A DNA stretch of 64,000 nt from a virus, in IMG/VR virus record IMGVR_UViG_3300049215_000481, positions 62,001-126,000 of that record. One strand, 5' to 3'. The position numbers and the translations under genes were made by a program. The notes under the pieces are model-generated. The model ran no database searches. It was not told the DNA's origin and worked only from the letters and a program-made list of their open reading frames with translations. This document shows positions 8,206-55,737 of this stretch, one piece after another (the first letter of the stretch is position 1; the number at the start of each line of letters is the position of its first letter).

Positions 8206-8919
8206 TTACTTGGTCTTGAACGACCGCGTCACGAAGTCTTCGTCCACCTCGGCATCCGGCGCGATCTGGACCTGCTTCATCTGGCGGAAGAGCTTCAGCA
8301 GATCCTCGTCGGTGGCGTTGAGCACGACCACGGGCAGCAACTGCCCCTTGAACTTTGCCGCCAGGGCCTTGCTCGTGACGACGGTCGCCACGAAGTTCAT
8401 GTTGAGGACGTCGCCGCAGGCGTTGCGCACCAGCTCGCGGACGTAGTTGGTCGTGTCCTCGGCCGTCTTGACGATGCGGATGTCCTTCAGCTCGGGCGCG
8501 TTGATCGGGTCGATGCCGAGGTCCTTGACGAGCCCGTTGATGAGAGGCATCAGGCGGAAGAGCTGGTCTGACGTGAACTCCCGGCTGTTGCCGATCGTCG
8601 CGTCGACCGTCTCGGAGAGGCGGCTGTACAGCTCGCGCATGTCCACCGTGAACGTGCTGCCCACGTTCTCGGCGATCTCCGCGTACTTCTTGGTCTGCTC
8701 GGGCGTGCCGACCGGCACGAACGCGCGCGACTGGAAGAAGATGCGGCTCCGGTACTCCTTGGTCAGCTTCCCGAGGCTCTCCCGCGCCTCGTTCTTCGCC
8801 ATCTCGAACGCCGCCTGCAGCTTGCGCGGCTTCGAGGAGATGTCGACGGCCAGGGTCTCCTGGGCCGCCGTGATGTCATTCAGGATCGCTTCCGACGTCC
8901 GCTTCTGTTCCGGCTTCAT
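8206..8919 (-). CDS. Conserved-looking protein of unknown function (237 aa)
   Basis: A mixed alpha/beta protein with no motif I can name. The N-terminal half is helical and charged (AAQETLAVDISSKPRK, KLTKEYRSRIFFQSR). The second half contains a hydrophobic strand region (QLLPVVVLNATDEDLL). The gene overlaps the polymerase C-half gene by 44 bases, has a GAAGAAG ribosome site, and lies upstream of ssb, so a replication accessory role is plausible but not shown. Confidence 0.65.
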   Translation of the reverse strand: MKPEQKRTSEAILNDITAAQETLAVDISSKPRKLQAAFEMAKNEARESLGKLTKEYRSRIFFQSRAFVPVGTPEQTKKYAEIAENVGSTFTVDMRELYSRLSETVDATIGNSREFTSDQLFRLMPLINGLVKDLGIDPINAPELKDIRIVKTAEDTTNYVRELVRNACGDVLNMNFVATVVTSKALAAKFKGQLLPVVVLNATDEDLLKLFRQMKQVQIAPDAEVDEDFVTRSFKTK

Positions 8920-11128
8920 CTTCTTCTTCCTTCTCGGGTTTCGTTTCGGTTTGCTTCTGGCTTTGCTCCAGCGACGGCTGGACCACGAGCAAGTCGTCCA
9001 ATGCGAACGGCTTCTCGGTCTTGAACTTAGTGAGGACGGCGAACACGATGGAGCCGGCCAGGGAGCCTTTGAACAGCTCCGGGATGACGCCGGCCTTGCC
9101 GCCCCACTTCACGAACTGCATGCGAGCCCCGGCGACATCGAGGACGACCTCGCACGCCTCCTTCTTCTCGTCGCCCCACGTGAACGGCCTGGTCGACTCG
9201 ACGTAGGCGGCGACTGCCACCTGGAGCATCTCGTCTTCTGCTAGCGTGGTGCGGTCAGCGCGCTCGACCTCCGACGCCGACATCACGTCCAGCTTGATGA
9301 CGCGCGACGAGTTCGGCGGCTGCCAGTTGATCACCGGCCCGTCGTTCGTGTCCTCGACGAAATCTGTGGCGCCCCTGATCTCGGGCAGGAGATCCATCGA
9401 GTACGCCGGCAGGATGCTCTTCTTGATCTGGAAGCGCTTGAGCCGGCTGAGGTCCCACTTGGCCTTGTCGACCGTCTGCGGCTTGACCAGCTTCGGCTTC
9501 TCGGCGCCCGGCCTCTTGGCCAGCTCCTCGTTGGTGGCGTTGACCGCGGCAGCCAGCGCGCGCTCGAAGTCATTGAGCTGCTCGCCTAGGTGCATCTCGG
9601 GCGGGAACAGCGAGTCCATCGAGCCGGACAGGATCAGCTTCTCGACCACACCTCGGTTGAGTGCGCTGTTCCCTCGCTTGAACGTCGCCACCTCCTCGGT
9701 GATCTCCGGCGAGACGAGCTTCCCCTCCTCGTTGCGGTACTTGTTCTTCGTGTCCTTGCGAGTCTTCAGCTTCGTGACCCACTCGCCGCCGCGCACCCGG
9801 TGCAGGTCGATCTTCCGGCAGAAGTCGTCGATGTCCGTGTATGGGGCGTACGCCGTGAGCTGCGCCTGGGCCTTGTCACCGACGCCGTGGAGGAGGTTCA
9901 GCGGGGCACGGATGCGCGTCCCTTGGATCTCGAAGTTCTCACCCGACAGCTTCACGTCCGGGAGGTCGATGAGCTGGCCGCAGTGGCGCCAGAACTTCTC
10001 CTGGATCTCGGTCTTGTCCGCGTTGCGGAGGATGGCCGTCCACCACTCCAGCGGGTAGTGATGCTTGAGGTACGCGCAGGCGTAGCCGTCGACCGAGTAG
10101 CAGACGGAGTGCGACTTGTTGAAGCCGTACTTCGCCCAGGTGATGAAGAACTGCCAGGCCGCTTCGGCGTTCTCCTTGCCGATCTTCGCGCCGGCCTTCT
10201 CGATGAAGGGCTTGTAGGCCTTCTCGATCTTCGCCTTCTTCTTCTTGGCGACGTTCGAGCGGAACTCCTCGGCGTCCGACCCCGAGCAGCCCGTGAGCTG
10301 CTGGTACACGCGCTGGAGCTGCTCCTGATAGACCATGACCCCGTACGTCTCGGGAATCAGCTCATTGAAGATCTGGAGGACGTCCGGGCTCGGGTTCGCG
10401 CCGCGTGCCCGCCGCGCGTACTCGACCAGCATGTTGTGCTTCTTGTTGGGCTCGTCCGGGTTGCTGACCGGGATGTCGAGCGGGCCGGGGCGGTCGAGCG
10501 CCGTGAAGGCCGACATGGCCTCGATCGAGTCGATGGCGTAGTTGCCGTTCGGCTTCCTGTAGGCGAAGTGCTCCAGCCACTGCACGGCGCCCGGCGTGTT
10601 GAACTGGAACACCGTCTCGGTCTTGCCGGTGGCGACGTCAGCGAACACCGCCTGGTCACCTGGCAGGTCCCAGATGTCCACGAACTTGTCGCCCATCGGC
10701 AGCAGACGCTGCGAGGGGACGCGGCGGCCGTTGAGGATGATGGAGAACCGCTTCTCGCGGGGCGGCCCGCTCCATCCAACCAGGTTCTCCTCGTGGTCGA
10801 TGATGCGGTACTGGCTCATGTCGACGTTGTGCGCGTACCGGCTCTGGATGAGCTGGATGGCGTCGCCGATGTCGTCGAGACACCCGAGGCCGAGGAAGTC
10901 CATCTTCAGACCGCCGACCGCCTCGACGCTCGGGGCGGTGTACGCGGTGACCATGACGTCGGACACGGACGTCAGCGGAATGAACTCGGAGATGGGGCGG
11001 TTCGCGATGACGAACGCGCAGTTGTGAACAATTACCCCGCTTTCGTGAATGAAGCTGTGGTCGCCGTGCTCGACCGACAGGTCGTACACAGGCTGGACAC
11101 CTAGAGAGCGCGCGGCAACGATCTTCAC
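8876..11128 (-). CDS. dnaE-C: DNA polymerase III alpha (DnaE-like), C-terminal half with intein C-fragment
   Basis: 750 residues. Residues 1-36 are an intein C-fragment (VKIVAARSLGVQPVYDLSVE ... GVIVHN) followed by Cys+1 of the C-extein. The C-extein (714 aa) starts CAFVIANRPI, the continuation of the conserved HA-x-G/A-x-VIA segment of C-family polymerases. It carries the third catalytic aspartate region (LKMDFLGL), the fingers motif YGFNKSHSVCYS, and later tau/OB-like parts. An in-frame TGA just before the GTG start means this is a separate translation unit. The halves must be spliced in trans to give a polymerase of about 1358 aa. The far C-terminus is Lys/Glu-rich. Confidence 0.9.
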   Translation of the reverse strand: MKIVAARSLGVQPVYDLSVEHGDHSFIHESGVIVHNCAFVIANRPISEFIPLTSVSDVMVTAYTAPSVEAVGGLKMDFLGLGCLDDIGDAIQLIQSRYAHNVDMSQYRIIDHEENLVGWSGPPREKRFSIILNGRRVPSQRLLPMGDKFVDIWDLPGDQAVFADVATGKTETVFQFNTPGAVQWLEHFAYRKPNGNYAIDSIEAMSAFTALDRPGPLDIPVSNPDEPNKKHNMLVEYARRARGANPSPDVLQIFNELIPETYGVMVYQEQLQRVYQQLTGCSGSDAEEFRSNVAKKKKAKIEKAYKPFIEKAGAKIGKENAEAAWQFFITWAKYGFNKSHSVCYSVDGYACAYLKHHYPLEWWTAILRNADKTEIQEKFWRHCGQLIDLPDVKLSGENFEIQGTRIRAPLNLLHGVGDKAQAQLTAYAPYTDIDDFCRKIDLHRVRGGEWVTKLKTRKDTKNKYRNEEGKLVSPEITEEVATFKRGNSALNRGVVEKLILSGSMDSLFPPEMHLGEQLNDFERALAAAVNATNEELAKRPGAEKPKLVKPQTVDKAKWDLSRLKRFQIKKSILPAYSMDLLPEIRGATDFVEDTNDGPVINWQPPNSSRVIKLDVMSASEVERADRTTLAEDEMLQVAVAAYVESTRPFTWGDEKKEACEVVLDVAGARMQFVKWGGKAGVIPELFKGSLAGSIVFAVLTKFKTEKPFALDDLLVVQPSLEQSQKQTETKPEKEEEDEAGTEADVGSDPE
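11021..11128 (-). other. Split intein C-fragment (IntC, 36 residues)
   Basis: Residue pattern KI-A-R-LG-Q-VYD--VE--DH-F----G-I--N, followed by Cys, matches the DnaE split-intein C-fragments of cyanobacteria (for example Npu) almost position by position. It has the penultimate His (IVHN) and terminal Asn needed for branch resolution, so it looks active. Confidence 0.88.
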
Positions 11129-11174
11129 AGGCTCACCAGCGCTGCGTCACATTGATACCTGTGACACCACCCCT

Positions 11175-11723
11175 TCATGGTTCCAACCTACTCAGTACCC
11201 GGCCCACCTCGATCATCGTCTCGTACTTCATATTGTCACCTCGCACTCGGTTACAGCGCACACAGCTCGGCACGCAGTTCCCCTTGATGTGTCCTAGCGC
11301 GTTCTCGATGCGATCGAGCCCAGTTGCTGGCCGGTCGCAGTATGTGCACTTGGCTCTGACGGCACTGAGGCAGTCATTGACGTCGAGGTCGAAGCCCCTC
11401 CCAGCCTTACGATCGTGCTGGCGGTAGACGTGTCGCATCCTGATCGCACGCCGTTCTTCTTCCGTCCCGTAGATGATCCGCGAGTCATAAGCGCAGCGCC
11501 GGCACCAGTAGCCGGTCTTTTTGAGCGCAGTCCACGGGCGCTCCCATTGATGTCCCGAGGCGCACTCCCAGGTAGAGTTTCCGGTCGCCCGCCCTGGCCA
11601 TGAGACAAGTCGCCCGCCTCTAGCTGAGGCGTACCCCTCGGCCTCTCCACGTTTCCAGTCGCAGCCACGTCTACGAGAACCAGCTCCACCCCCACTTGCA
11701 TCGCCAGCGCGATCTCCATCCAC
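11175..11723 (-). CDS. HNH homing endonuclease inside the fractured polymerase gene
   Basis: 182 residues from the only usable upstream start, GTG 11723. The frame differs by one base from the polymerase/intein frame and overlaps the intein N-fragment coding region. Residues about 23-77 form a zinc-ribbon DNA-binding module of the homing-enzyme type (ASARGG, WECASGH, GYWCRRC). Residues about 125-170 form the HNH nuclease (KCTYCDRPATGLDRIENA, then CVRCNRVRGDN). It stops 46 bases before the IntC start. Expected role: cutting intein-less polymerase alleles to spread the insertion. Confidence 0.82.
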   Translation of the reverse strand: MDGDRAGDASGGGAGSRRRGCDWKRGEAEGYASARGGRLVSWPGRATGNSTWECASGHQWERPWTALKKTGYWCRRCAYDSRIIYGTEEERRAIRMRHVYRQHDRKAGRGFDLDVNDCLSAVRAKCTYCDRPATGLDRIENALGHIKGNCVPSCVRCNRVRGDNMKYETMIEVGRVLSRLEP

Positions 11724-13864
11724 CCACGCTCCGTCATCACTAGGTGATCTGGCGTGCACCGGATCTTGCTCCCGTTCTCCAGGCAGTACTCGACCACCTC
11801 GCGTTCTCCTTGGTGAAGGAGCGTAGCTTTGGCGGGAATCTGGTTCCCCGTGAGGACTGTGCGGCCGTCGCACTCTTTGATGGGCTTTGTCTCGTTGCAC
11901 GAAAGTAAGATTGCTTCTCCACCAGGGAAGCACGCGTGCCGGCCCTTCTGTCGCGCCAGGCCGAGGCACTTCTGGACGATCTCCCAGTCCTGCGGATACG
12001 CGTTGATGTAGTCGCGCAGCGCGGGGTCGTACTCGACGGAGCCCTGGACGTGGCCCTCGTCGGTGTCGTAGCCCATGACGAAGTCGAAGTCCGTCACGCC
12101 CTGCGGCGGCTTGATGAACTTCTTCGAGTATCTCGCGATGTCCGGCGCGACGTGCCCGCGCATCGCGCGCGAGACGTCCATGACGGCCATGCTGACCTTC
12201 AGCGTGCTGTCGACCGAGATCTGCGCGTAGTGGTCGCCGAAGCGCTTCTTGAGCCACCCGTTCACCGGGTCGATCAGCAGCTCGCGGCGTCGCTTCGGGA
12301 GGTCCTGATCGATGTCGGGGAGCTTCCCGGACTCGATGCGGTCCTGCGTGAGGAAGCGCTCCATCGACAGCTCGTACTTGAGCGGGTCGACGTGCGTGAT
12401 GCCGATGAGGTAGGTCAGCAGCATGCCGGCCGCCGAACCACGACCCGGGCCCGTGAGGTAGCCGAGACGCTCGAAGAAGGAGCACACCTCTTCGTCGACG
12501 AAGAAGTACGGCAGGAGGTCGATGGTGCGGTTCTCGTGCAGCAGCGTGATCTCGGCTCGGAGCCGGTCGACGTAGCGCTTGTCGCTCCAGTCCATCCGGC
12601 CGTGCCGCTGGATGAGGTCGCGGGTGTAGCGCAGGGAGTTGTGGCGGTCGCCGGGGATGAACCACGGCTGCAGCTCGTACTTCTCCTCGTAGAACTTGGT
12701 GGGCAGCGACGGCGGCGAATCGAAGACGAAGCCCTTGAACCGCTCGGCCCACTCGTGGGTGTTCTCCACCCATCCCTCGAAGGTCTTCTCCGAGGTGAAG
12801 AGCTTGTTCTTGAAGTAGTGGAGCGCCTCTTCGCTGGACTGCCGGTGGTAGTTGCCGTAGAAGCGCCACGAGCCCGACTGAGCCAGGCGCACGTCCTGGA
12901 CGACCTTCTCGTCGATCTTCGCGTAGTGCGAGTCGTCTCCGATGAGGACCTTGCAGTCGAACTGCCGCGCGAGGGCGATCATCATCTTGTTGAGACCGGC
13001 CTGCACGTCGCCATCGGGTGCCCACGGGCGGCACTCGTTCGGCATGAACTCCTCGACGTACTCGACGTTCGTGATCTCGACCTCTGGCATCTCGCGCCAG
13101 ACGGAGTAGTCCTTGATGGACCGCAGGACCTTGTGCTCGTTCGACTTGGTGCCCCACGCCGAGGCAAGAGCCGCCGCGCGGATCTCGCCGACGTTCGTCA
13201 GGAACCACTTCTTGTCGTGGAACTTCGCGCGCGTGCCGTCTGCGAGCGTGATGAACACGCCCTTGACCCAGTTCTTCGACGTGTCGTGCGGGTTGACCTC
13301 GACGTACAGGTTCCCGGGCTTGACGATCGACTTCAGGCGCTCGAAGTACTTGATCGCCATCGGCACGTCGTTGTTTTCGAGGACGTGGCGCTGGACCATG
13401 CCGATCATGCAGCCGGTCGTCATCGTCACGTTGTGAGAGGCCAGCTCTTCGAGGTTGGCCCAGTTGAAAAGCGGCTTGCGCTCCTTGCCGTGGAACTCGG
13501 CGCGCACGTCTGCCTTCGACAGCAACCGGACACCGCACTCGTAGGCGGCCTGGTCCAGGAAGTGGAGGGTGATGTGGCAGTACTTCAGGTAGTCGACGTA
13601 CGTGCCGTCCTCGTTCTTGGGCACGCCCGCGGCCTGGAAGATCGGGCAGTCGTCGTCTCGGAAGTAGCCTTCGAGACCGAGCACCGGAGTGAGCCCTCTG
13701 GCCTTGCCGAGGTCGTAGACCTTGCGACAGGCAGCGAGGCTCCCGTGGTCGGTCACCGTGATGACCCCGGAGCCCAGCTCGACCTCTCGGTCTGCGAACG
13801 CTTCAGGGGTCGAGGCTGAGTCGAGCGACTGGGGATGACAGTGACAGGTAGCGAAGTTCCGCAC
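11294..13864 (-). CDS. dnaE-N: DNA polymerase III alpha (DnaE-like), N-terminal half with intein N-fragment
   Basis: 856 codons from GTG 13864. Residues 1-644 are the N-extein: a PHP domain (CHCHPQSLD with His8/His10, ITVTDHGSL, GLEGYF, GDDSHYAK) and the palm with SGKLPDIDQDLPKRRR, whose two aspartates match the PDxDxD catalytic pair. The extein ends at GRHA. Cys645 begins the intein N-fragment. The last ~118 codons of this frame are low-complexity and simply shadow the HNH gene in another frame, so the useful protein probably ends near residue 738. A class A motif lies 11 bases upstream. No Shine-Dalgarno site. Confidence 0.9.
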   Translation of the reverse strand: MRNFATCHCHPQSLDSASTPEAFADREVELGSGVITVTDHGSLAACRKVYDLGKARGLTPVLGLEGYFRDDDCPIFQAAGVPKNEDGTYVDYLKYCHITLHFLDQAAYECGVRLLSKADVRAEFHGKERKPLFNWANLEELASHNVTMTTGCMIGMVQRHVLENNDVPMAIKYFERLKSIVKPGNLYVEVNPHDTSKNWVKGVFITLADGTRAKFHDKKWFLTNVGEIRAAALASAWGTKSNEHKVLRSIKDYSVWREMPEVEITNVEYVEEFMPNECRPWAPDGDVQAGLNKMMIALARQFDCKVLIGDDSHYAKIDEKVVQDVRLAQSGSWRFYGNYHRQSSEEALHYFKNKLFTSEKTFEGWVENTHEWAERFKGFVFDSPPSLPTKFYEEKYELQPWFIPGDRHNSLRYTRDLIQRHGRMDWSDKRYVDRLRAEITLLHENRTIDLLPYFFVDEEVCSFFERLGYLTGPGRGSAAGMLLTYLIGITHVDPLKYELSMERFLTQDRIESGKLPDIDQDLPKRRRELLIDPVNGWLKKRFGDHYAQISVDSTLKVSMAVMDVSRAMRGHVAPDIARYSKKFIKPPQGVTDFDFVMGYDTDEGHVQGSVEYDPALRDYINAYPQDWEIVQKCLGLARQKGRHACFPGGEAILLSCNETKPIKECDGRTVLTGNQIPAKATLLHQGEREVVEYCLENGSKIRCTPDHLVMTERGWMEIALAMQVGVELVLVDVAATGNVERPRGTPQLEAGDLSHGQGGRPETLPGSAPRDINGSARGLRSKRPATGAGAALMTRGSSTGRKKNGVRSGCDTSTASTIVRLGGASTSTSMTASVPSEPSAHTATGQQLGSIASRTR
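11651..11932 (-). other. Split intein N-fragment (IntN, about 94 residues)
   Basis: Begins with Cys1 (CFPGGEAILL) after extein GRHA. It contains GEREVVEYCLENGSKIRCT and PDHLVMTERGWMEI, the block A/B features (TxxH) of Hint domains, close to Npu DnaE-N in order and spacing. It ends near VELVLVDVAATGN, almost exactly where the HNH domain begins in the shifted frame. Confidence 0.87.
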
Positions 13865-25500: not shown

Positions 25501-27261
25501 TTACGGCCTCTCGTCCGCGGGGTTGCTGTTCGCGTCTCGGAGCCACGCTGCCGTGGCTTGCGCCTCGGAGCGCTCCAGCTCGTTGTCGCGCCGGAACACG
25601 ACCGTGCCGCCCAGCGTGCCCAGGAGCGTCGCGATCGAGATGCTGTTCCGCACCGACTCCAGCACCGCGGGTGTGCTGTCGAGGATGCCGTCGGCGTACG
25701 GGTCGACGTGCTTGTTGTTGAGGAAGTCGTAGACGACCGGCTTGCCGTCGCGGATGCCCTCCAAGATCGGGCCGAGGACCGCGCGGGCCTCCTTGTCGTC
25801 GACGATGCCCGAGTTCGAGAGGAGCCGGTTGAAGGGCTCCATGAACGCCGGACGCAGCACGGAGTCGATGATCTCGTCGTGGGGGAGGATGCTCAGCAGC
25901 TTCAGCAGCGTCCACGCGCCGCCGGGCAGGCAGCCGTGCTTGATGGCTCCGCGCACGGCGCACACGGCGTCCTCCGCACGGTCACGCTTCTCCTTGCGTT
26001 CGCCGTTCGACGAGCCGATGACGTGCAGCTTCGCGATGCCGCCGGCCAGCTTGGCGATGCGCTCACGGAGCTGGATGGCGTCCAGCTCCGCCTCGGCCGC
26101 CGAGAGCTGCTGTTCCAGCTCGGAGATGCGGATCTCCAGCAGGGTCTCGTCGGCGTAGCCGAGGACCGACGAGCGGAAGCGCCCGCCCTCGAACATCTCG
26201 ACGCCGGGGCCCAGGTCCTCGATGCTCGCCTGGTCGATGGGTGCCGACAGCGGGTCGAGGATCTTCGCGCCCGTGATGGCCGACATGTCCTTCAGGAACT
26301 CCTGCTGGCCGTTCGGCATGATGCTCTGGGGCACGACGAGCGGGAACACGTTGATGGTGTCGTCCCGAAGGAAGTTCGCCGCGAGGTTCGCCAGCACCGT
26401 CTCGGAGAACCCGATCGCGCAGATGACGACGTTGCGGTTGTACTTCTTCGTCTCCCACAGGTAGCCGACCTGCTCCATCAGGAGCTTGATCGACTGAATC
26501 TCCGTGATGCGCCCGTGGTAGAGGAGGAAGACCGGCTTCTCCATGACGACCCGCTGCGTGCCGGGGTCGTTGATGAACGCCGAGTAGAACTTGCCGCACG
26601 AGTCGTCGTAGCCGACCGGCACGGAGTAGCCGTCGATCTTCTCGACCTCGTAGCGACTCGGGCCGCTCGTCTCGACGATCGTGACGTTGCCCTCGTCGCC
26701 GGTGATCTCGAAGCACTGCATGACGGCGTCCGCGAGGGCCGTGTCGCCGTTCGCCGACACCTGCGCGACCGCGCGGAGGAGCTTCGCGTCCTCCGCGTTG
26801 TCGAAGTTCACCCGCCGCGAGAGCTGCTTGATGCCGGGCTCGATGTAGTCCCGGAACATGCTCTCCAGGTGCCGCACGACCTTCTGCGGGCTCACCCGCT
26901 TCTTCGCGTTGCAGTACTCGTTGATGTACCGCACGATCGCCTCGGAGAGGATCGTCGCTGTCGTCGTGCCGTCACCGGCGTCCGAAGCCGTGCGGACCGC
27001 GGCGTCGCGCGCCGCTTCCATGATGCAGTGGGCGGCCGAGTCGTCGAAGCCCAGGCTCCGGAACACGGTGACGCCGTCCTTGGTCACGATGGGCGGGAGG
27101 TTGTGCTCGTAACGCTCGATGAGCACCGGCTGGCCGCCGGGCCCGAGCGTGCCGCCGACGATCTTCGAGATCGTCGACATCGTGTGCAGGATGGTGGAGT
27201 TGAGCGAGTCGCCCTTGACTGAGACGCTCTTCGCTACGCTCTTGACCTTGTGGTAATCCAT
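25501..27261 (-). CDS. groEL: Phage-encoded GroEL-like chaperonin (Hsp60)
   Basis: 586 residues starting MDYHKVKSVAKSVSV. Group I chaperonin marks: VGGTLGPGGQPVLI (nucleotide-binding loop), DAGDGTTTATILSEAI (DGTTT), apical domain in the middle (VEKIDGYSVPVGYDD), and GGIAKLHVIGSS with CLPGGAWTLLK further on. It is slightly longer than E. coli GroEL (548) and clearly divergent. It would fold phage proteins, most likely capsid or other large proteins, either with host GroES or alone as in phage EL-type chaperonins. A class A motif sits 11 bases before the ATG. Confidence 0.9.
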   Translation of the reverse strand: MDYHKVKSVAKSVSVKGDSLNSTILHTMSTISKIVGGTLGPGGQPVLIERYEHNLPPIVTKDGVTVFRSLGFDDSAAHCIMEAARDAAVRTASDAGDGTTTATILSEAIVRYINEYCNAKKRVSPQKVVRHLESMFRDYIEPGIKQLSRRVNFDNAEDAKLLRAVAQVSANGDTALADAVMQCFEITGDEGNVTIVETSGPSRYEVEKIDGYSVPVGYDDSCGKFYSAFINDPGTQRVVMEKPVFLLYHGRITEIQSIKLLMEQVGYLWETKKYNRNVVICAIGFSETVLANLAANFLRDDTINVFPLVVPQSIMPNGQQEFLKDMSAITGAKILDPLSAPIDQASIEDLGPGVEMFEGGRFRSSVLGYADETLLEIRISELEQQLSAAEAELDAIQLRERIAKLAGGIAKLHVIGSSNGERKEKRDRAEDAVCAVRGAIKHGCLPGGAWTLLKLLSILPHDEIIDSVLRPAFMEPFNRLLSNSGIVDDKEARAVLGPILEGIRDGKPVVYDFLNNKHVDPYADGILDSTPAVLESVRNSISIATLLGTLGGTVVFRRDNELERSEAQATAAWLRDANSNPADERP

Positions 27262-27272
27262 CAAGAAGTGCG

Positions 27273-27284
27273 TATAGCGAATCT
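27273..27284 (-). promoter_or_regulatory. Class A motif upstream of chaperonin gene
   Basis: Gene-sense AGATTCGCTATA, 11 bases before ATG 27261, in the short gap after the helicase stop. No ribosome site between motif and start. Confidence 0.72.
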
Positions 27285-27286
27285 CC

Positions 27287-28813
27287 CTATGCCGGCTTCG
27301 CAGCCGGCTGGAGCTTCCCAGTCTCCGGAGGAGCGAGCAGGAAGAACGACTTCGCCCAGGTCGGCCTGTCGCGGATGTCTGTGAGCGGAAGCCACTTGGT
27401 GTCGGAGCCGGCGAGGCGCCCGACCGTGTAGAGCTTGCGGTACTGACCGCGCTTGAAGTACGTGACCATCGTGAACGAGGTGCGCGTCCCGCCGCCATCG
27501 CGAGACTTCAAGATACGGACGAAGGTCGGCTGGCCACCCTCACCTTCGGCCGCCTGCCTCAGACGCTGCAGCGGCACCTTCTCCTCGTCGACGCCGTTCG
27601 GCTGCCCGAGCGCCACGATCCAGGTCGCTGCCTTCGAGATGTCCGACGAGCCGTGGATGTCGTCGATCGACGGCAGAAGCACGAGGTCGCGGCGCGGTCC
27701 CGTGTGCTTGCGGACGTGAGCCGCGAGGACGATCGGGCGGTCGATAGTCAGGTTGACGTCGCGGATGCGCTGCACGATGTCCGAGAGGGCCTCGGTCTCG
27801 CTCTTCTTGTCGCCCTTGTCGATGTAGTGGAGGTGGTCGACGAGGATGATGTCGACGTCCTTCGCCACCGCGAGGATGTCCCGCTCCAGCGTCTCGATCG
27901 TGTACCGGCTGTTGACCTTGTACGTGATGTTGATGTTCGCGAGGACCGCCTTCAGCTCCTCAGGCTTCGGCTCGAACAGCTTCAGGTCAGGACGTAGGCC
28001 ACGACTCCACTCGACGTAGTCGATCGGCTTGCCGTTCGAGACGTTCGAGCCGTAGTAGTTCTCCTGGATCTTCGCGAACTGGAGGCGTGCCTCCATCTCG
28101 CCCTTCGCAGCTTCGAGTGCGAAGAGCTTCACCTTCTTGCCCATCGCGGCCATGTTCCAGGCCATCAGGGCCATGATCTGGGACTTGCCGACGCCGGTGC
28201 TGGCGGTGACGATCACGAGGTCGTCGGGCCGGATGCCGTACATCGGCTCGTCCAGGAACGAGAGGCCGGTGTACACGAGGCGCTCGGGTGTCGCCTCTCG
28301 TCGAGCGATCGAGATGTCGTACCAGTCCGCAGACGACTTGGCCATCGCGGTGAGGCCGTTGCTCGACATGTGGTCGAGCTTCCGCGAGAGGTTGTGCAGC
28401 TTCGCCACAGCCTCGTCCTGCATCTGCTTGTTCCAGACCGACTCCAGGTCGACCATGCCGGTGAGGAACTCGGAGCCGACCCGGAGGTGCACGAGGTCGT
28501 CGAACACGGTCTCCAGACCCACGGTCTTCGCCTGTGTGAGGGCGAGGTCGAGTGTGCGGAGAGATGCCTGCGTGACCTTCGAGTCGGCACCTTCACCCTT
28601 CGCGAGAGCGATCTTCAGCTCTTCGAGAGTGGGGTGCCTGTGGAACTTCCGGGCGAACTCGTCGAGGCGACCGAAGATGCGCTGCGTGTTGGGCTCGTCG
28701 AGCATCTCCGGCTTGTAGCCGAGGTGCACGGCTGCGTCGTAGACGCGCTGTTCGTTGACGAGGTGACCGAGGAGAGCGAGCTGCTGTTCAGGAGAGAATG
28801 AGACGGTGGGCAT
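27287..28813 (-). CDS. DnaB-type replicative DNA helicase
   Basis: 508 residues. An N-terminal helical domain (about 1-150) is followed by a RecA-like core with VYTGLSFLDEPMYGIRPDDL (the DnaB linker-to-core motif), Walker A TASTGVGKSQ near 207, LFALEAAKGEME (H1a-like), Walker B DIILVDHLHYI near 325, and VLAAHVRKH in the Q/sensor position. It would unwind DNA ahead of the split DnaE polymerase and work with the primase at 3888-4934. The upstream gene encodes a replication-initiation-type protein. Confidence 0.87.
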   Translation of the reverse strand: MPTVSFSPEQQLALLGHLVNEQRVYDAAVHLGYKPEMLDEPNTQRIFGRLDEFARKFHRHPTLEELKIALAKGEGADSKVTQASLRTLDLALTQAKTVGLETVFDDLVHLRVGSEFLTGMVDLESVWNKQMQDEAVAKLHNLSRKLDHMSSNGLTAMAKSSADWYDISIARREATPERLVYTGLSFLDEPMYGIRPDDLVIVTASTGVGKSQIMALMAWNMAAMGKKVKLFALEAAKGEMEARLQFAKIQENYYGSNVSNGKPIDYVEWSRGLRPDLKLFEPKPEELKAVLANINITYKVNSRYTIETLERDILAVAKDVDIILVDHLHYIDKGDKKSETEALSDIVQRIRDVNLTIDRPIVLAAHVRKHTGPRRDLVLLPSIDDIHGSSDISKAATWIVALGQPNGVDEEKVPLQRLRQAAEGEGGQPTFVRILKSRDGGGTRTSFTMVTYFKRGQYRKLYTVGRLAGSDTKWLPLTDIRDRPTWAKSFFLLAPPETGKLQPAAKPA

Positions 28814-52366: not shown

Positions 52367-52897
52367 ATGCGGCAGGTGTCCTTCCACTTCATGCACAAGA
52401 AGCGTCCGACCTCCCGCCACGCGCAGGAGGACAAGGACGGGTGGGTGCGGATGTACCAGCAGGGGAAGAGCTATCGCGAGATCGCGGTAGCGTTCGACGT
52501 ACCGTATCCGAGCGTCTTCTACTATGTCAGGAAGACCCTCGGCATCACTGACGGACGGAAGCCCGGACGCAAGAAAAAGTACACGGATCTTTCTCCTCGC
52601 CAGGTCCAGCGCAACTGCCAGCTCAGGAACTCGTACGGCATCTCTCTCGACGAGTACGCAGTATTGAAGGAGTCGCAGGGTGGCGTCTGCGCGATTTGCG
52701 AACTGCCGCCGAAGAACGGCAAGACGTCGACAAGTGCACTGCACGTAGATCACGACCACGAGACTGGTCGAGTGCGTGGGCTGCTCTGTCAGAAGTGCAA
52801 CCCAGCTCTCGGCCAGTTCAACGACGACCCAGACCTGCTGGAGCGTGCGGCCTCGTACCTGCGCCTTCACCGTGAAGCTCAGAAGGTGGCTGCGTAG
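52367..52897 (+). CDS. HNH / endonuclease VII-like endonuclease with N-terminal HTH
   Basis: 176 residues. The N-terminus has a resolvase-type helix-turn-helix ([30 protein letters not shown]), not seen in the other copies. The nuclease core follows: [36 protein letters not shown] and [19 protein letters not shown]. Stop overlaps the next GTG (TAGTG). Probably a mobile endonuclease that acquired a different targeting domain. Confidence 0.8.
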
Positions 52898-55737
52898 TGG
52901 CTGAAGTCGCTCTGATCACCGCATACAACGGCCACGGCCAGCTCCTCTTCGGGAAGCGCAAGGACAACGGCCGCTGGACCCTCCCGGGCGGTCACTTCGA
53001 GGAGGGCGAGACTCCCGAGCAGGCGGCGCGCCGCGAGATGTTCGAGGAGACGGGTCTGCACGCGCAGACTCTCGTCCCGTTCGCCACGTTCACGAACCCG
53101 CAGGGCATCACACTGCACTGCTTCTCCGCGTTCGTCACCGGCGAGCCCCACAGCAACTTCGACCCCGACGACGAGGTCGAGAAGTGGGAGTTCGTTGACA
53201 TCGAGAACGGCATCCCGTCGAAGATCTGGGAGCACCTCCACGGTCCGCAGGACGATCAGAACCTCGTCCGCCGCGTGTTCGAGGCTGAGGGCCTGTCGAA
53301 GGCCGAGGAGCCGCTGGCGAAGGCCAAGTGGCGCGTCAAGGACAGCGACGTCTACACCACGTACGAGTTCCCCGACGAGGAGTCGGCGAAGGAGTACCGG
53401 AAGAAGGCGGGCAGCAAGTACGAAGACGACTGGAAGGGCATCGGCGTCTGTGAGGTGAAGGGGAAGCGCGTGGTCGCCCGCGCGTGGAGCGACTCTAACC
53501 TCGACGACTTCACGTCGCTCGCGGTGAAGATGGGAGGCAAGATCGTCGACGCCGACGACATGGACGACCTCGTGTCGCCGGAGCGCTTCCGCGAGCTGGG
53601 GAAGGCCGAGGACGAGGTCGGCAGGCTCCTGGAGCATCCCTCGCCGCACGAGCGCACGCTCGCGCTGAAGCTCAACACCGTCACGCCGCGCCACCTGCAG
53701 ACGGCCTCGCTCGACCCGCACCCAGACGTGCACTCGCTCGCCATCGCGAACCCGCAGTTCGGGCACGCGGAGGCACACCACCTGATGTCGGCTTCTGCCG
53801 GCAGCGACGGGAAGTTCCCGCTCGTGCAGCAGCACGAGTTCCTGCGCCAGCACGACCGCGTTCGGCCGTACCACCTCGTCTCGTTCGTGAACAACGCTCG
53901 CGCTCACGCCGCGGGCGACGACCTCGACCGCGCGCTGACCATCGCTGTCGGCCACCCCAGCCTGCCGCCTGTCATGGTGCGGTCTCTGTACCTCGACCCG
54001 CGCACCTCAGCGGCGCACCGCCTCGCCCTAGTGGGTCATATGAAGGCGCCTGTCGACGTCCTGGAGCACGCCCTCCACACGGGCCTCATCGTCCCGTCGG
54101 CCGAGGCGACCTCACTCGCACAGGCTGCGGTCGCACACCCCTCCCTCCCCCACAGCTCCGTCGAGCACGTCGTCAAGATGGCCGGTGACCGAGGCGAGCC
54201 GCACGTCGTCGCCATCGCGACCCACGCTCTCAAGACGAACGCCACGTCGCCGGAGATGAAGGAGCACCTCTTCACGCAGACGCTCCTGAAGCCGCGCTCC
54301 GCAGCCTCGCGCGCGCTCCTGAACGCGTTCCTGGAGGGGCCCTCGGCGAAGCCCGAGGACCGCCAGCGCGCTCTCGGGCAGTTGCTGAACAAGTCCGAGC
54401 CGCTCGCGAAGGCCGTCGCCCCGCAGCACTTCAGCTCCATCGTGAAGGCGCTCGACCCCGAAGCTCACAAGCTCGTTGACCACAAGCCAGACCTGTCCGC
54501 GCACCCGCAGTCGCACGGCGCCGAGGTCCAGGCGTATCACCACAACGTCGTGAACAGCGCCCAGCGCGTTGGCGCGCACTCCAGCGGCAGCGCTGGCCTC
54601 GGCGGTGGCATCACGCGCAAGAAGGTGTTCCGCTACCAGGTCCCGGGTCAAACAGAGCCCGGCAAGGCCATGGTGAAGCCCTATCACGAGCGTGTCATCC
54701 AGCGCTGCAGCAAGTGGATGAAGTATCCGATCCAGGGCTGGGCCGAAATGACGACGCAGGCCCTCTTCCACGCAGGCGGCATCGGGCACCTCCACCAGAA
54801 GGTCCACGTCACAGAGCACAACATGGGTCCGGGGCACGAGCACGAGCCCGCCCTGGTCGTGCACCTCGCCCCGAATCACCTCGCGGTCACGGACGGCGGT
54901 CGGACCTACTACAAGCCCGAGCAACACGACCTGGACGTGCGGAAGATCGCGCTGATGGACTTCCTTACGAACAACAACGACCGCCACGGTGGGAACTTGA
55001 TGTTCAACGCCGACACCGGCGCACCGCTCGCGATCGACCACTCGCGGAACTTCCAGTACATCCGTCCGGCGCAGGACCGTTTGTCGCTGGACCGCACGCC
55101 CGACGGCGAGGACACGTTCAAGAACTACGCAACCGGTGCGCTCCACGGCATCGCCAGTCCGGTCACGGAGGATGTCCGCCGCAACTACGACTACGACAAG
55201 CCGGGTGACCGCCAGCGCGCCCTGTACGACGCGCAGCTCGACGGCATGCGGAAGTACGCCCCGGCCTTCGAGTGGTGGGACGAGGCGGGTCCGAAGATCC
55301 GCCAGGAGTTCCACAAGCGCCTCGACCAGATCAAGGACCCGGAGGTGCGCGACCACCTGAAGCGCAACTTCGATGCGCGCGCCGACTGGCTCGACGAGCG
55401 CGGGCATTTCGGCTTGGAGAACTACGGCGGCGACTGGTACCACGACGCCGTTCCGATGTACAAACCGGACCAGCTCTCCGAGGCGGAGAAGGACGACCCC
55501 GAGGCCGTGGCCCGCTTCAACGAGCGTATCCGCGCGAAGCAGGACGCAGAGAAGAAGGCGCGCGCGGACAAGCGCAACGCGAAGAAGGCGTATCAGAACT
55601 GGCTCAACGAGAAGCCGCAGTACCCGCACCACATCATGAGCCTGCCTCGCGAGCAGATCGACCAACACCCGGACTGGAAGAAGTACGTCGAAGCGTACGA
55701 TCCGTGGCTCGCGCGACGGCCGGCGGAGGCAGCGTAA
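52897..55737 (+). CDS. Nudix hydrolase + helical repeats + HipA/PI3K-like kinase fusion
   Basis: 946 residues from GTG. Residues 1-130: Nudix hydrolase with a complete Nudix box, [18 protein letters not shown] followed by FEETGL. Residues ~240-540: repeated helical units of the type 'HPSLPxxxVxxL', like HEAT/ARM variants. Residues ~585-720: a kinase-like core with KAMVKPYHE (Lys594 candidate), catalytic loop [17 protein letters not shown] (Asp695, Asn700) and LAIDHSRNF (Asp714 metal), the HipA / PI3-4-kinase pattern. A charged helical C-terminus follows. Located among virion genes, so it may be packaged and injected; this is inferred. Confidence 0.8.

What the first reader, a model, noticed from the sequence alone, without database searches (positions are those of the whole stretch)
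8876..13864. DNA polymerase split into two genes by a trans-splicing intein, with an HNH endonuclease in the gap
Seen: the N-half (11294-13864) has the PHP domain and the PDxDxD aspartates, ending GRHA-Cys; the C-half (8876-11128) starts with a 36-aa IntC then Cys-AFVIA and carries the third catalytic Asp (KMDFLGL). The halves are separated by stops in the polymerase frame, and a 182-aa HNH gene lies between them, one base out of frame and abutting the end of IntN. Known: this matches the 'fractured gene' layout of split inteins, and IntN/IntC resemble cyanobacterial DnaE inteins, but the insertion point (HA-x-x-VIA) differs from the cyanobacterial FNKSHS-proximal site. Inference: active polymerase exists only after trans-splicing, which could also act as a timing control.
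Basis: partly seen in the sequence, partly recalled or inferred. Interest (0 to 1): 0.92.

Follow-up and report, generated by a model that had tools for sequence, protein, structure and literature searches.

The report
Phage polymerase gene split by intein
A large bacterial virus related to Myxococcus phage Mx1 makes its replicative DNA polymerase as two proteins, each ending in half of a self-splicing intein that should join them, with a DNA-cutting gene in the gap that probably spreads the whole insertion; the arrangement is a known but rare one, here in a new gene position and a new virus group.

Summary
The window is 64 kb of a 169,280-bp IMG/VR phage record related to Myxococcus phage Mx1. 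DnaE is encoded as N-extein+IntN (11294-13864) and IntC+C-extein (8876-11128), with an HNH/endonuclease VII-like gene (11175-11723) between. IntN and IntC both pass NCBIfam intein cut-offs, match Npu DnaE best (1.5e-14), keep Cys1, TPDH, penultimate His, Asn and Cys+1, and AlphaFold2 assembles them into a HINT fold (best PDB match Npu DnaE, TM 0.80). Joining GRHA|CAFVIA restores the uninterrupted Mx1 sequence.

Five in-frame stops, and an independent distant phage (L009) with the same site, order and parts, rule out a simple sequencing error. IntN and HNH have GC3 of about 71% against 92-93% in the exteins, so the cassette arrived recently. A third phage (L151) carries a one-piece LAGLIDADG intein at the same site.

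It is a new member of the known 'fractured gene' kind, at a DnaE position other than the cyanobacterial one. That activity requires splicing, or that splicing is a timing control, is unproven. Eleven relatives have DnaE broken elsewhere with splice-dead HINT remnants as tails, so this polymerase family seems to tolerate being in pieces.

The parts
11933..13864 (-). N-extein of DnaE (PHP domain and first part of palm, PDIDQD), ends ...RQKGRHA
   Evidence: 50.6% identical to Mx1 DnaE over 641 aa
12308..12316 (-). PDIDQD: codons of two catalytic Asp (Asp517, Asp519)
   Evidence: invariant in 15 relatives; catalytic role from established knowledge of DnaE
11654..11932 (-). IntN, about 93 aa, Cys1 at 11932-11930, block B TPDH
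   Evidence: TIGR01445 25.8 bits over cut-off; 49% identical to L009 IntN; pLDDT about 90 for residues 1-80
11294..11653 (-). Out-of-frame C-terminal extension of the IntN ORF, overlapping the HNH gene; probably meaningless sequence ending at the first stop (TAG 11294-11296)
   Evidence: codon-position composition and shuffles; L009 IntN stops at 93 aa
11175..11723 (-). HNH / endonuclease VII-like gene, 182 aa from GTG 11723; zinc CxxC...CxxCN and GLDR motifs present
   Evidence: PHROG 1035 endonuclease VII 5e-13; 45.5% identical to the L009 HNH over 156 aa; freestanding homologues in other phages, e.g. ESCO41 1e-12
11729..11732 (-). GGAG, possible ribosome-binding site 5 nt before the HNH GTG
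   Evidence: sequence inspection; inference
11021..11128 (-). IntC, 36 aa, GTG start, blocks F and G, ends VHN
   Evidence: TIGR01443 35.1 bits over cut-off; 55.6% identical to L009 IntC
8876..11020 (-). C-extein of DnaE, starts Cys+1-AFVIA, third catalytic Asp in KMDFLGL (codon 10898-10900), finger and HhH domains

Best explanation
The phage's only replicative DNA polymerase (DnaE) is made as two proteins. The first is N-extein plus IntN, the second IntC plus C-extein. IntN and IntC associate into a class 1 HINT splicing domain of the DnaE split-intein type and join GRHA to CAFVIA by trans-splicing, which unites the two catalytic Asp of the N-half with the one of the C-half. The cassette IntN-HNH-IntC is a mobile element: its HNH/endonuclease VII-like enzyme probably cuts uninterrupted dnaE alleles at the conserved RHA^C site so that repair copies the whole cassette in. 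Shown by computation: intact halves, intact splice residues, complementary fold, exact empty sites in relatives, same site and order in an independent phage, foreign codon composition of the cassette. Inferred: that splicing takes place, that the HNH starts at GTG 11723, and that it drives homing to this site.
For: (1) Family models for both intein halves exceed cut-offs and there is no other intein in the record. (2) phmmer against PDB: Npu DnaE intein 1.5e-14; nearly all of the strongest hits are DnaE inteins. (3) AlphaFold2 of the read-through IntN...IntC: IntN and IntC at pLDDT about 90 with a disordered linker; top PDB match 4kl5 Npu DnaE, TM 0.80 by target, alignment spanning both halves. 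(4) Splice residues Cys1, TPDH, HSF, VHN, Cys+1 conserved in L009. (5) Empty site: Mx1 SRHA-CAYVIA without insertion; L006 and L007, the closest relatives at 61-62% identity, are uninterrupted. (6) L009, a distant member (sister of Mx1), has IntN with its own stop, HNH in the same -1 frame, and IntC whose ATG overlaps the HNH stop. (7) Exteins GC3 92-93%, IntN 71.9, IntC 72.2, HNH 70.8; no extein stretch of the same length is as low as IntN or HNH. (8) Single DnaE, no PolA or PolB match in the record; root-to-tip distance of the window's DnaE is below the median of uninterrupted relatives. (9) No Rfam intron in the region.
Against: No splicing assay exists. The IntN ORF carries a 120-aa out-of-frame tail that could slow folding or mark the protein for degradation. 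The HNH lacks about 75 N-terminal residues present in L009 and has no clear start codon, so it may be decaying. The record is a metagenome assembly without reads. Related polymerases broken at another site lack any splice residues, so splicing may not be needed for activity.
Confidence: 0.85

Rival explanations
1. Non-covalent reassembly: the halves form an active two-subunit polymerase without (or before) splicing, the intein halves serving only as docking pieces.
For: Eleven relatives carry DnaE broken after PDIDxD with splice-dead HINT remnants and no sign of pseudogenisation. Split T4-like polymerase 43A/43B and split Aeh1 NrdA are active as complexes (PMC2988022).
Against: At this site all splice residues are intact in two distant phages, which would be unexpected without selection for splicing.
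Confidence: 0.08
2. Sequencing or assembly error in a normal one-piece intein carrying an HNH domain.
For: Metagenome assembly; IntN and IntC share one frame; the HNH frame is shifted by one base from IntN.
Against: Five stops lie between IntN and IntC, the HNH has its own stop, and L009 from another sample shows the same three-ORF order with a stop after IntN and an ATGA overlap.
Confidence: 0.03
3. IntN and HNH are one protein made by -1 ribosomal frameshifting, the HNH having no start codon of its own.
For: HNH lies in the -1 frame relative to IntN in both phages, with only a GTG inside IntN as possible start.
Against: No canonical slippery heptamer seen by eye; a GGAG-GTG start is available; the L009 HNH has an N-terminal region of its own.
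Confidence: 0.1
4. Decaying polymerase gene replaced by a host or second enzyme.
For: The gene is interrupted.
Against: Only polymerase found in the record; 1358 extein codons without a lesion; no rate acceleration.
Confidence: 0.02

Closest known systems
Cyanobacterial split DnaE inteins (Npu, Ssp DnaE)
   Same: DnaE host protein; ~100-aa IntN and 36-aa IntC split at the same place in the fold; best sequence and structure matches; class 1 residues
   Different: Inserted at RHA^C in the palm, not near FNKSHS; halves are adjacent genes in one phage with an HNH gene between, whereas the cyanobacterial halves lie far apart and have no endonuclease (own knowledge)
'Fractured genes' with split inteins and freestanding homing endonucleases (Dassa et al. 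2009, doi 10.1093/nar/gkp095; text not held, from own knowledge)
   Same: Adjacent split gene halves, IntN and IntC at the break, endonuclease gene in the gap, viral origin
   Different: Host protein is DnaE at a new site; the endonuclease is HNH/endonuclease VII-like rather than the Vsr-like EDxHD family named there
LAGLIDADG cis-intein in DnaE of phage record L151
   Same: Identical insertion site QHP^C...HN^CGYVIA
   Different: One open frame of 1489 aa with a different endonuclease type
Endonuclease-split phage genes without splicing (Aeh1 nrdA/mobE; T4-like gene 43A/43B, PMC2988022)
   Same: Essential replication gene cut by an HNH or Seg-type endonuclease gene
   Different: No intein halves; pieces assemble non-covalently
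Rhodococcus phage Trina DnaE intein
   Same: Actinophage DnaE with an intein; also encoded in two ORFs
   Different: The intein is a one-piece mini-intein at FNK^SHS

Membership tests
Class 1 split intein | N-terminal nucleophile Cys1 and block B TxxH | tested here: met
   Cys1 at 11932; TPDH, H63 invariant in alignment A5
Class 1 split intein | Block F/G with penultimate His, terminal Asn and Cys/Ser/Thr +1 | tested here: met
   VYDLSVEHGDHSF...VIVHN|C; TIGR01443 35.1 bits
Class 1 split intein | Halves encoded on separate ORFs | tested here: met
   five stops between them in the common frame
Class 1 split intein | HINT fold formed by both halves | tested here: met
   AlphaFold2 read-through model, 4kl5 TM 0.80
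Class 1 split intein | Trans-splicing activity | not testable with these tools
   needs co-expression
Fractured gene (Dassa et al. 2009) | Conserved gene broken where an uninterrupted homologue continues, with IntN and IntC at the break | tested here: met
   Mx1 SRHA-CAYVIA
Fractured gene (Dassa et al. 2009) | Freestanding endonuclease gene in the gap | tested here: met
   HNH/endonuclease VII PHROG 1035 5e-13
Fractured gene (Dassa et al. 2009) | Endonuclease of the Vsr-like EDxHD family (typical, not obligatory; from own knowledge) | tested here: not met
   HNH/endonuclease VII motifs instead
Cyanobacterial DnaE split intein allele | Same insertion site next to FNKSHS | tested here: not met
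   insertion at RHA^C, about 300 residues upstream of YGFNKSHS
HNH / endonuclease VII homing endonuclease | Zinc CxxC pair and catalytic D/N motif | tested here: met
   CTYC...GLDR...CVRCN, shared with L009
HNH / endonuclease VII homing endonuclease | Cuts the empty target allele | not testable with these tools
   needs a cleavage assay

The most novel reading that the evidence does not exclude
In this phage clade, a mobile IntN-HNH-IntC cassette breaks DnaE on arrival and trans-splicing repairs it. At another DnaE site, descendants of a similar split intein have lost splicing but kept HINT remnants as docking tails, turning a one-chain polymerase into a permanent two-subunit enzyme. The clade would then show the whole path from selfish split intein to domesticated assembly domain.
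Probability: 0.3. Interest if true: 0.78.

Novelty: new member of a known kind. Interest (0 to 1): 0.56.

Why it matters
Naturally split inteins are scarce and are used in protein engineering; this adds two DnaE-type pairs (window and L009) from outside cyanobacteria. The same site holds an empty allele (Mx1, L006, L007), a one-piece LAGLIDADG intein (L151) and two split-plus-HNH versions, so it is a natural series for asking how split inteins arise and move. It also shows that a replicative polymerase is a repeated target in one phage group, with at least six break or insertion sites.

Tried and rejected
Viral-contig scans with the C-half and the HNH as single queries found nothing; alignment-based scans did. 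No Rfam intron and no repeats at the break. Pfam and NCBIfam gave no HNH hit; PHROGs did. The paper search found no report of Mx1 or of this polymerase, and Dassa et al. 2009 is not held. A scan of bacterial genomes found only two related loci in MAGs (Saccharibacteria, Elusimicrobia), so the host is not identified. The idea that the 120-aa IntN extension is functional was rejected on codon-position composition and shuffles. AlphaFold2 of the L010 break supported the tail fold (pLDDT 78-93) but not its pairing with the C-part start.

Full report
What the window is. The window is part of a 169,280-bp IMG/VR virus record. Around the finding lies a replication module on the minus strand: primase, UvsX-like recombinase, ssDNA-binding protein, DnaE, ribonucleotide reductase, SbcC-like protein, DnaB. 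The nearest named relative is Myxococcus phage Mx1 (169,621 bp), whose DnaE is one uninterrupted gene about half identical to the window's.

Observation. The two DnaE ORFs, the intein halves and the HNH gene are present as described. Small corrections: the HNH gene overlaps IntN by about 70 nt; IntN and IntC share one frame with five stops between them; the last 120 residues of the IntN ORF are an out-of-frame reading of the HNH gene.

It is an intein. Both halves pass the NCBIfam cut-offs and are the only such matches in the record. The pair matches Npu DnaE at 1.5e-14. A read-through of IntN to IntC, aligned with eight one-piece inteins from related phages, folds with IntN and IntC at pLDDT about 90 and a disordered middle; its best PDB match is Npu DnaE, with the alignment spanning both halves. 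Removing it gives GRHA-CAFVIA, the same as Mx1 SRHA-CAYVIA.

It is a real split. I fetched 23, then 44, DnaE loci from viral contigs and mapped interruptions on 47 DnaE sequences. Besides the window, L009 is broken at exactly this codon. It has IntN with a stop after 93 aa, an HNH gene in the same -1 frame, and an IntC gene whose ATG overlaps the HNH stop. Identity between window and L009 is 49% (IntN), 56% (IntC), 45% (HNH), close to the exteins' 53%. L009 groups with Mx1 and the window with L006/L007, all three uninterrupted, so the cassette is patchily distributed. A pattern scan of the viral collection for the IntC/C-extein junction found only L009 and L151; L151 has a one-piece LAGLIDADG intein at the same site.

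Mobility. Extein GC3 is 93.0 and 92.0; IntN, IntC and HNH are 71.9, 72.2 and 70.8. No extein stretch of equal length falls as low as IntN or HNH; IntC is too short to judge alone. The three pieces therefore look like one recently acquired unit. The HNH belongs with phage endonuclease VII-like genes, and its homologues elsewhere are freestanding. That it drives homing to this site is inference.

How it works. The break lies in the palm domain, so two catalytic Asp are on one protein and one on the other. Class 1 trans-splicing should restore the 1358-aa enzyme. There is no other DnaE, PolA or PolB match in the record, and the DnaE branch is not accelerated. Splicing itself is not shown.

Caveat from relatives. 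In eleven other DnaE sequences of this clade the gene is broken about 110 residues upstream, just after PDIDxD. The N-part ends in a ~45-aa tail that matches the block B region of the inteins (hhalign 94%, 1.4e-7; control against extein 0.13%) but lacks Cys1 and TxxH. The C-part in most of them starts with MKI-S or similar, like IntC, but lacks blocks F and G. Some have an endonuclease VII-type gene in the gap (L016, L057), others none (L005, with an ATGA overlap). AlphaFold2 gives the tail the strand-helix order of IntN (strands at 123, 131, 137 and helix at 141 of the L010 model, against 56, 64, 70 and 74 in the window's IntN), but does not place the C-part start against it. These look like intein fossils, possibly kept as docking tails, and they warn against saying that the window's polymerase must be spliced to work.

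Known or new. The layout is that of 'fractured genes' with split inteins (Dassa et al. 2009, cited; text not held). New here are the DnaE RHA^C site, the HNH/endonuclease VII-type nuclease, and the phage group. Split phage polymerases and reductases without inteins are known (PMC2988022).

Noticed in passing
L005:7465-7679, L010:7341-7559, L015, L016:7049-7676, L017, L018, L019, L050, L054, L057:4492-5082, L058:5994-6903: DnaE split right after PDIDxD in eleven distinct phage DnaE sequences; the N-part tail is a splice-dead HINT remnant (block B region), the C-part mostly starts like IntC; possible docking tails derived from an intein.
   Followed up: partly
L016:8868-9914, L017:8838-10127, L018:8868-10133: One-piece inteins at FN(K/Q/R)^SHS whose long middle is open in the intein frame while another frame of the same DNA encodes a putative endonuclease (VDFVSPDHKxWVExDG motif), i.e. 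apparently overlapping genes.
   Followed up: partly
L151 (read on its - strand): DnaE of a 146,673-bp phage record with a one-piece LAGLIDADG intein at the same codon as the window's split intein.
   Followed up: yes
L013:8619-9650, L015:8610-9197, L064:6909-8054, L019:8808-9209, L043:10707-11276, L021:8184-9028: Further inteins or insertions at other sites of the same polymerase; DnaE is a repeated target in Mx1-like phages.
   Followed up: partly
window 25501-27498 (-): Phage-encoded GroEL-like chaperonin (PHROG 5725, 1.6e-81).
   Followed up: no
window 52897-55737 (+): 946-aa protein in the plus-strand gene block whose first ~100 residues match NUDIX hydrolase and portal-protein PHROG profiles; the rest is unassigned.
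   Followed up: no
L003:2458-6236 (Rhodococcus phage Trina): Trina DnaE is also encoded as two ORFs (PHP part and polymerase part) and carries a mini-intein at FNK^SHS.
   Followed up: no
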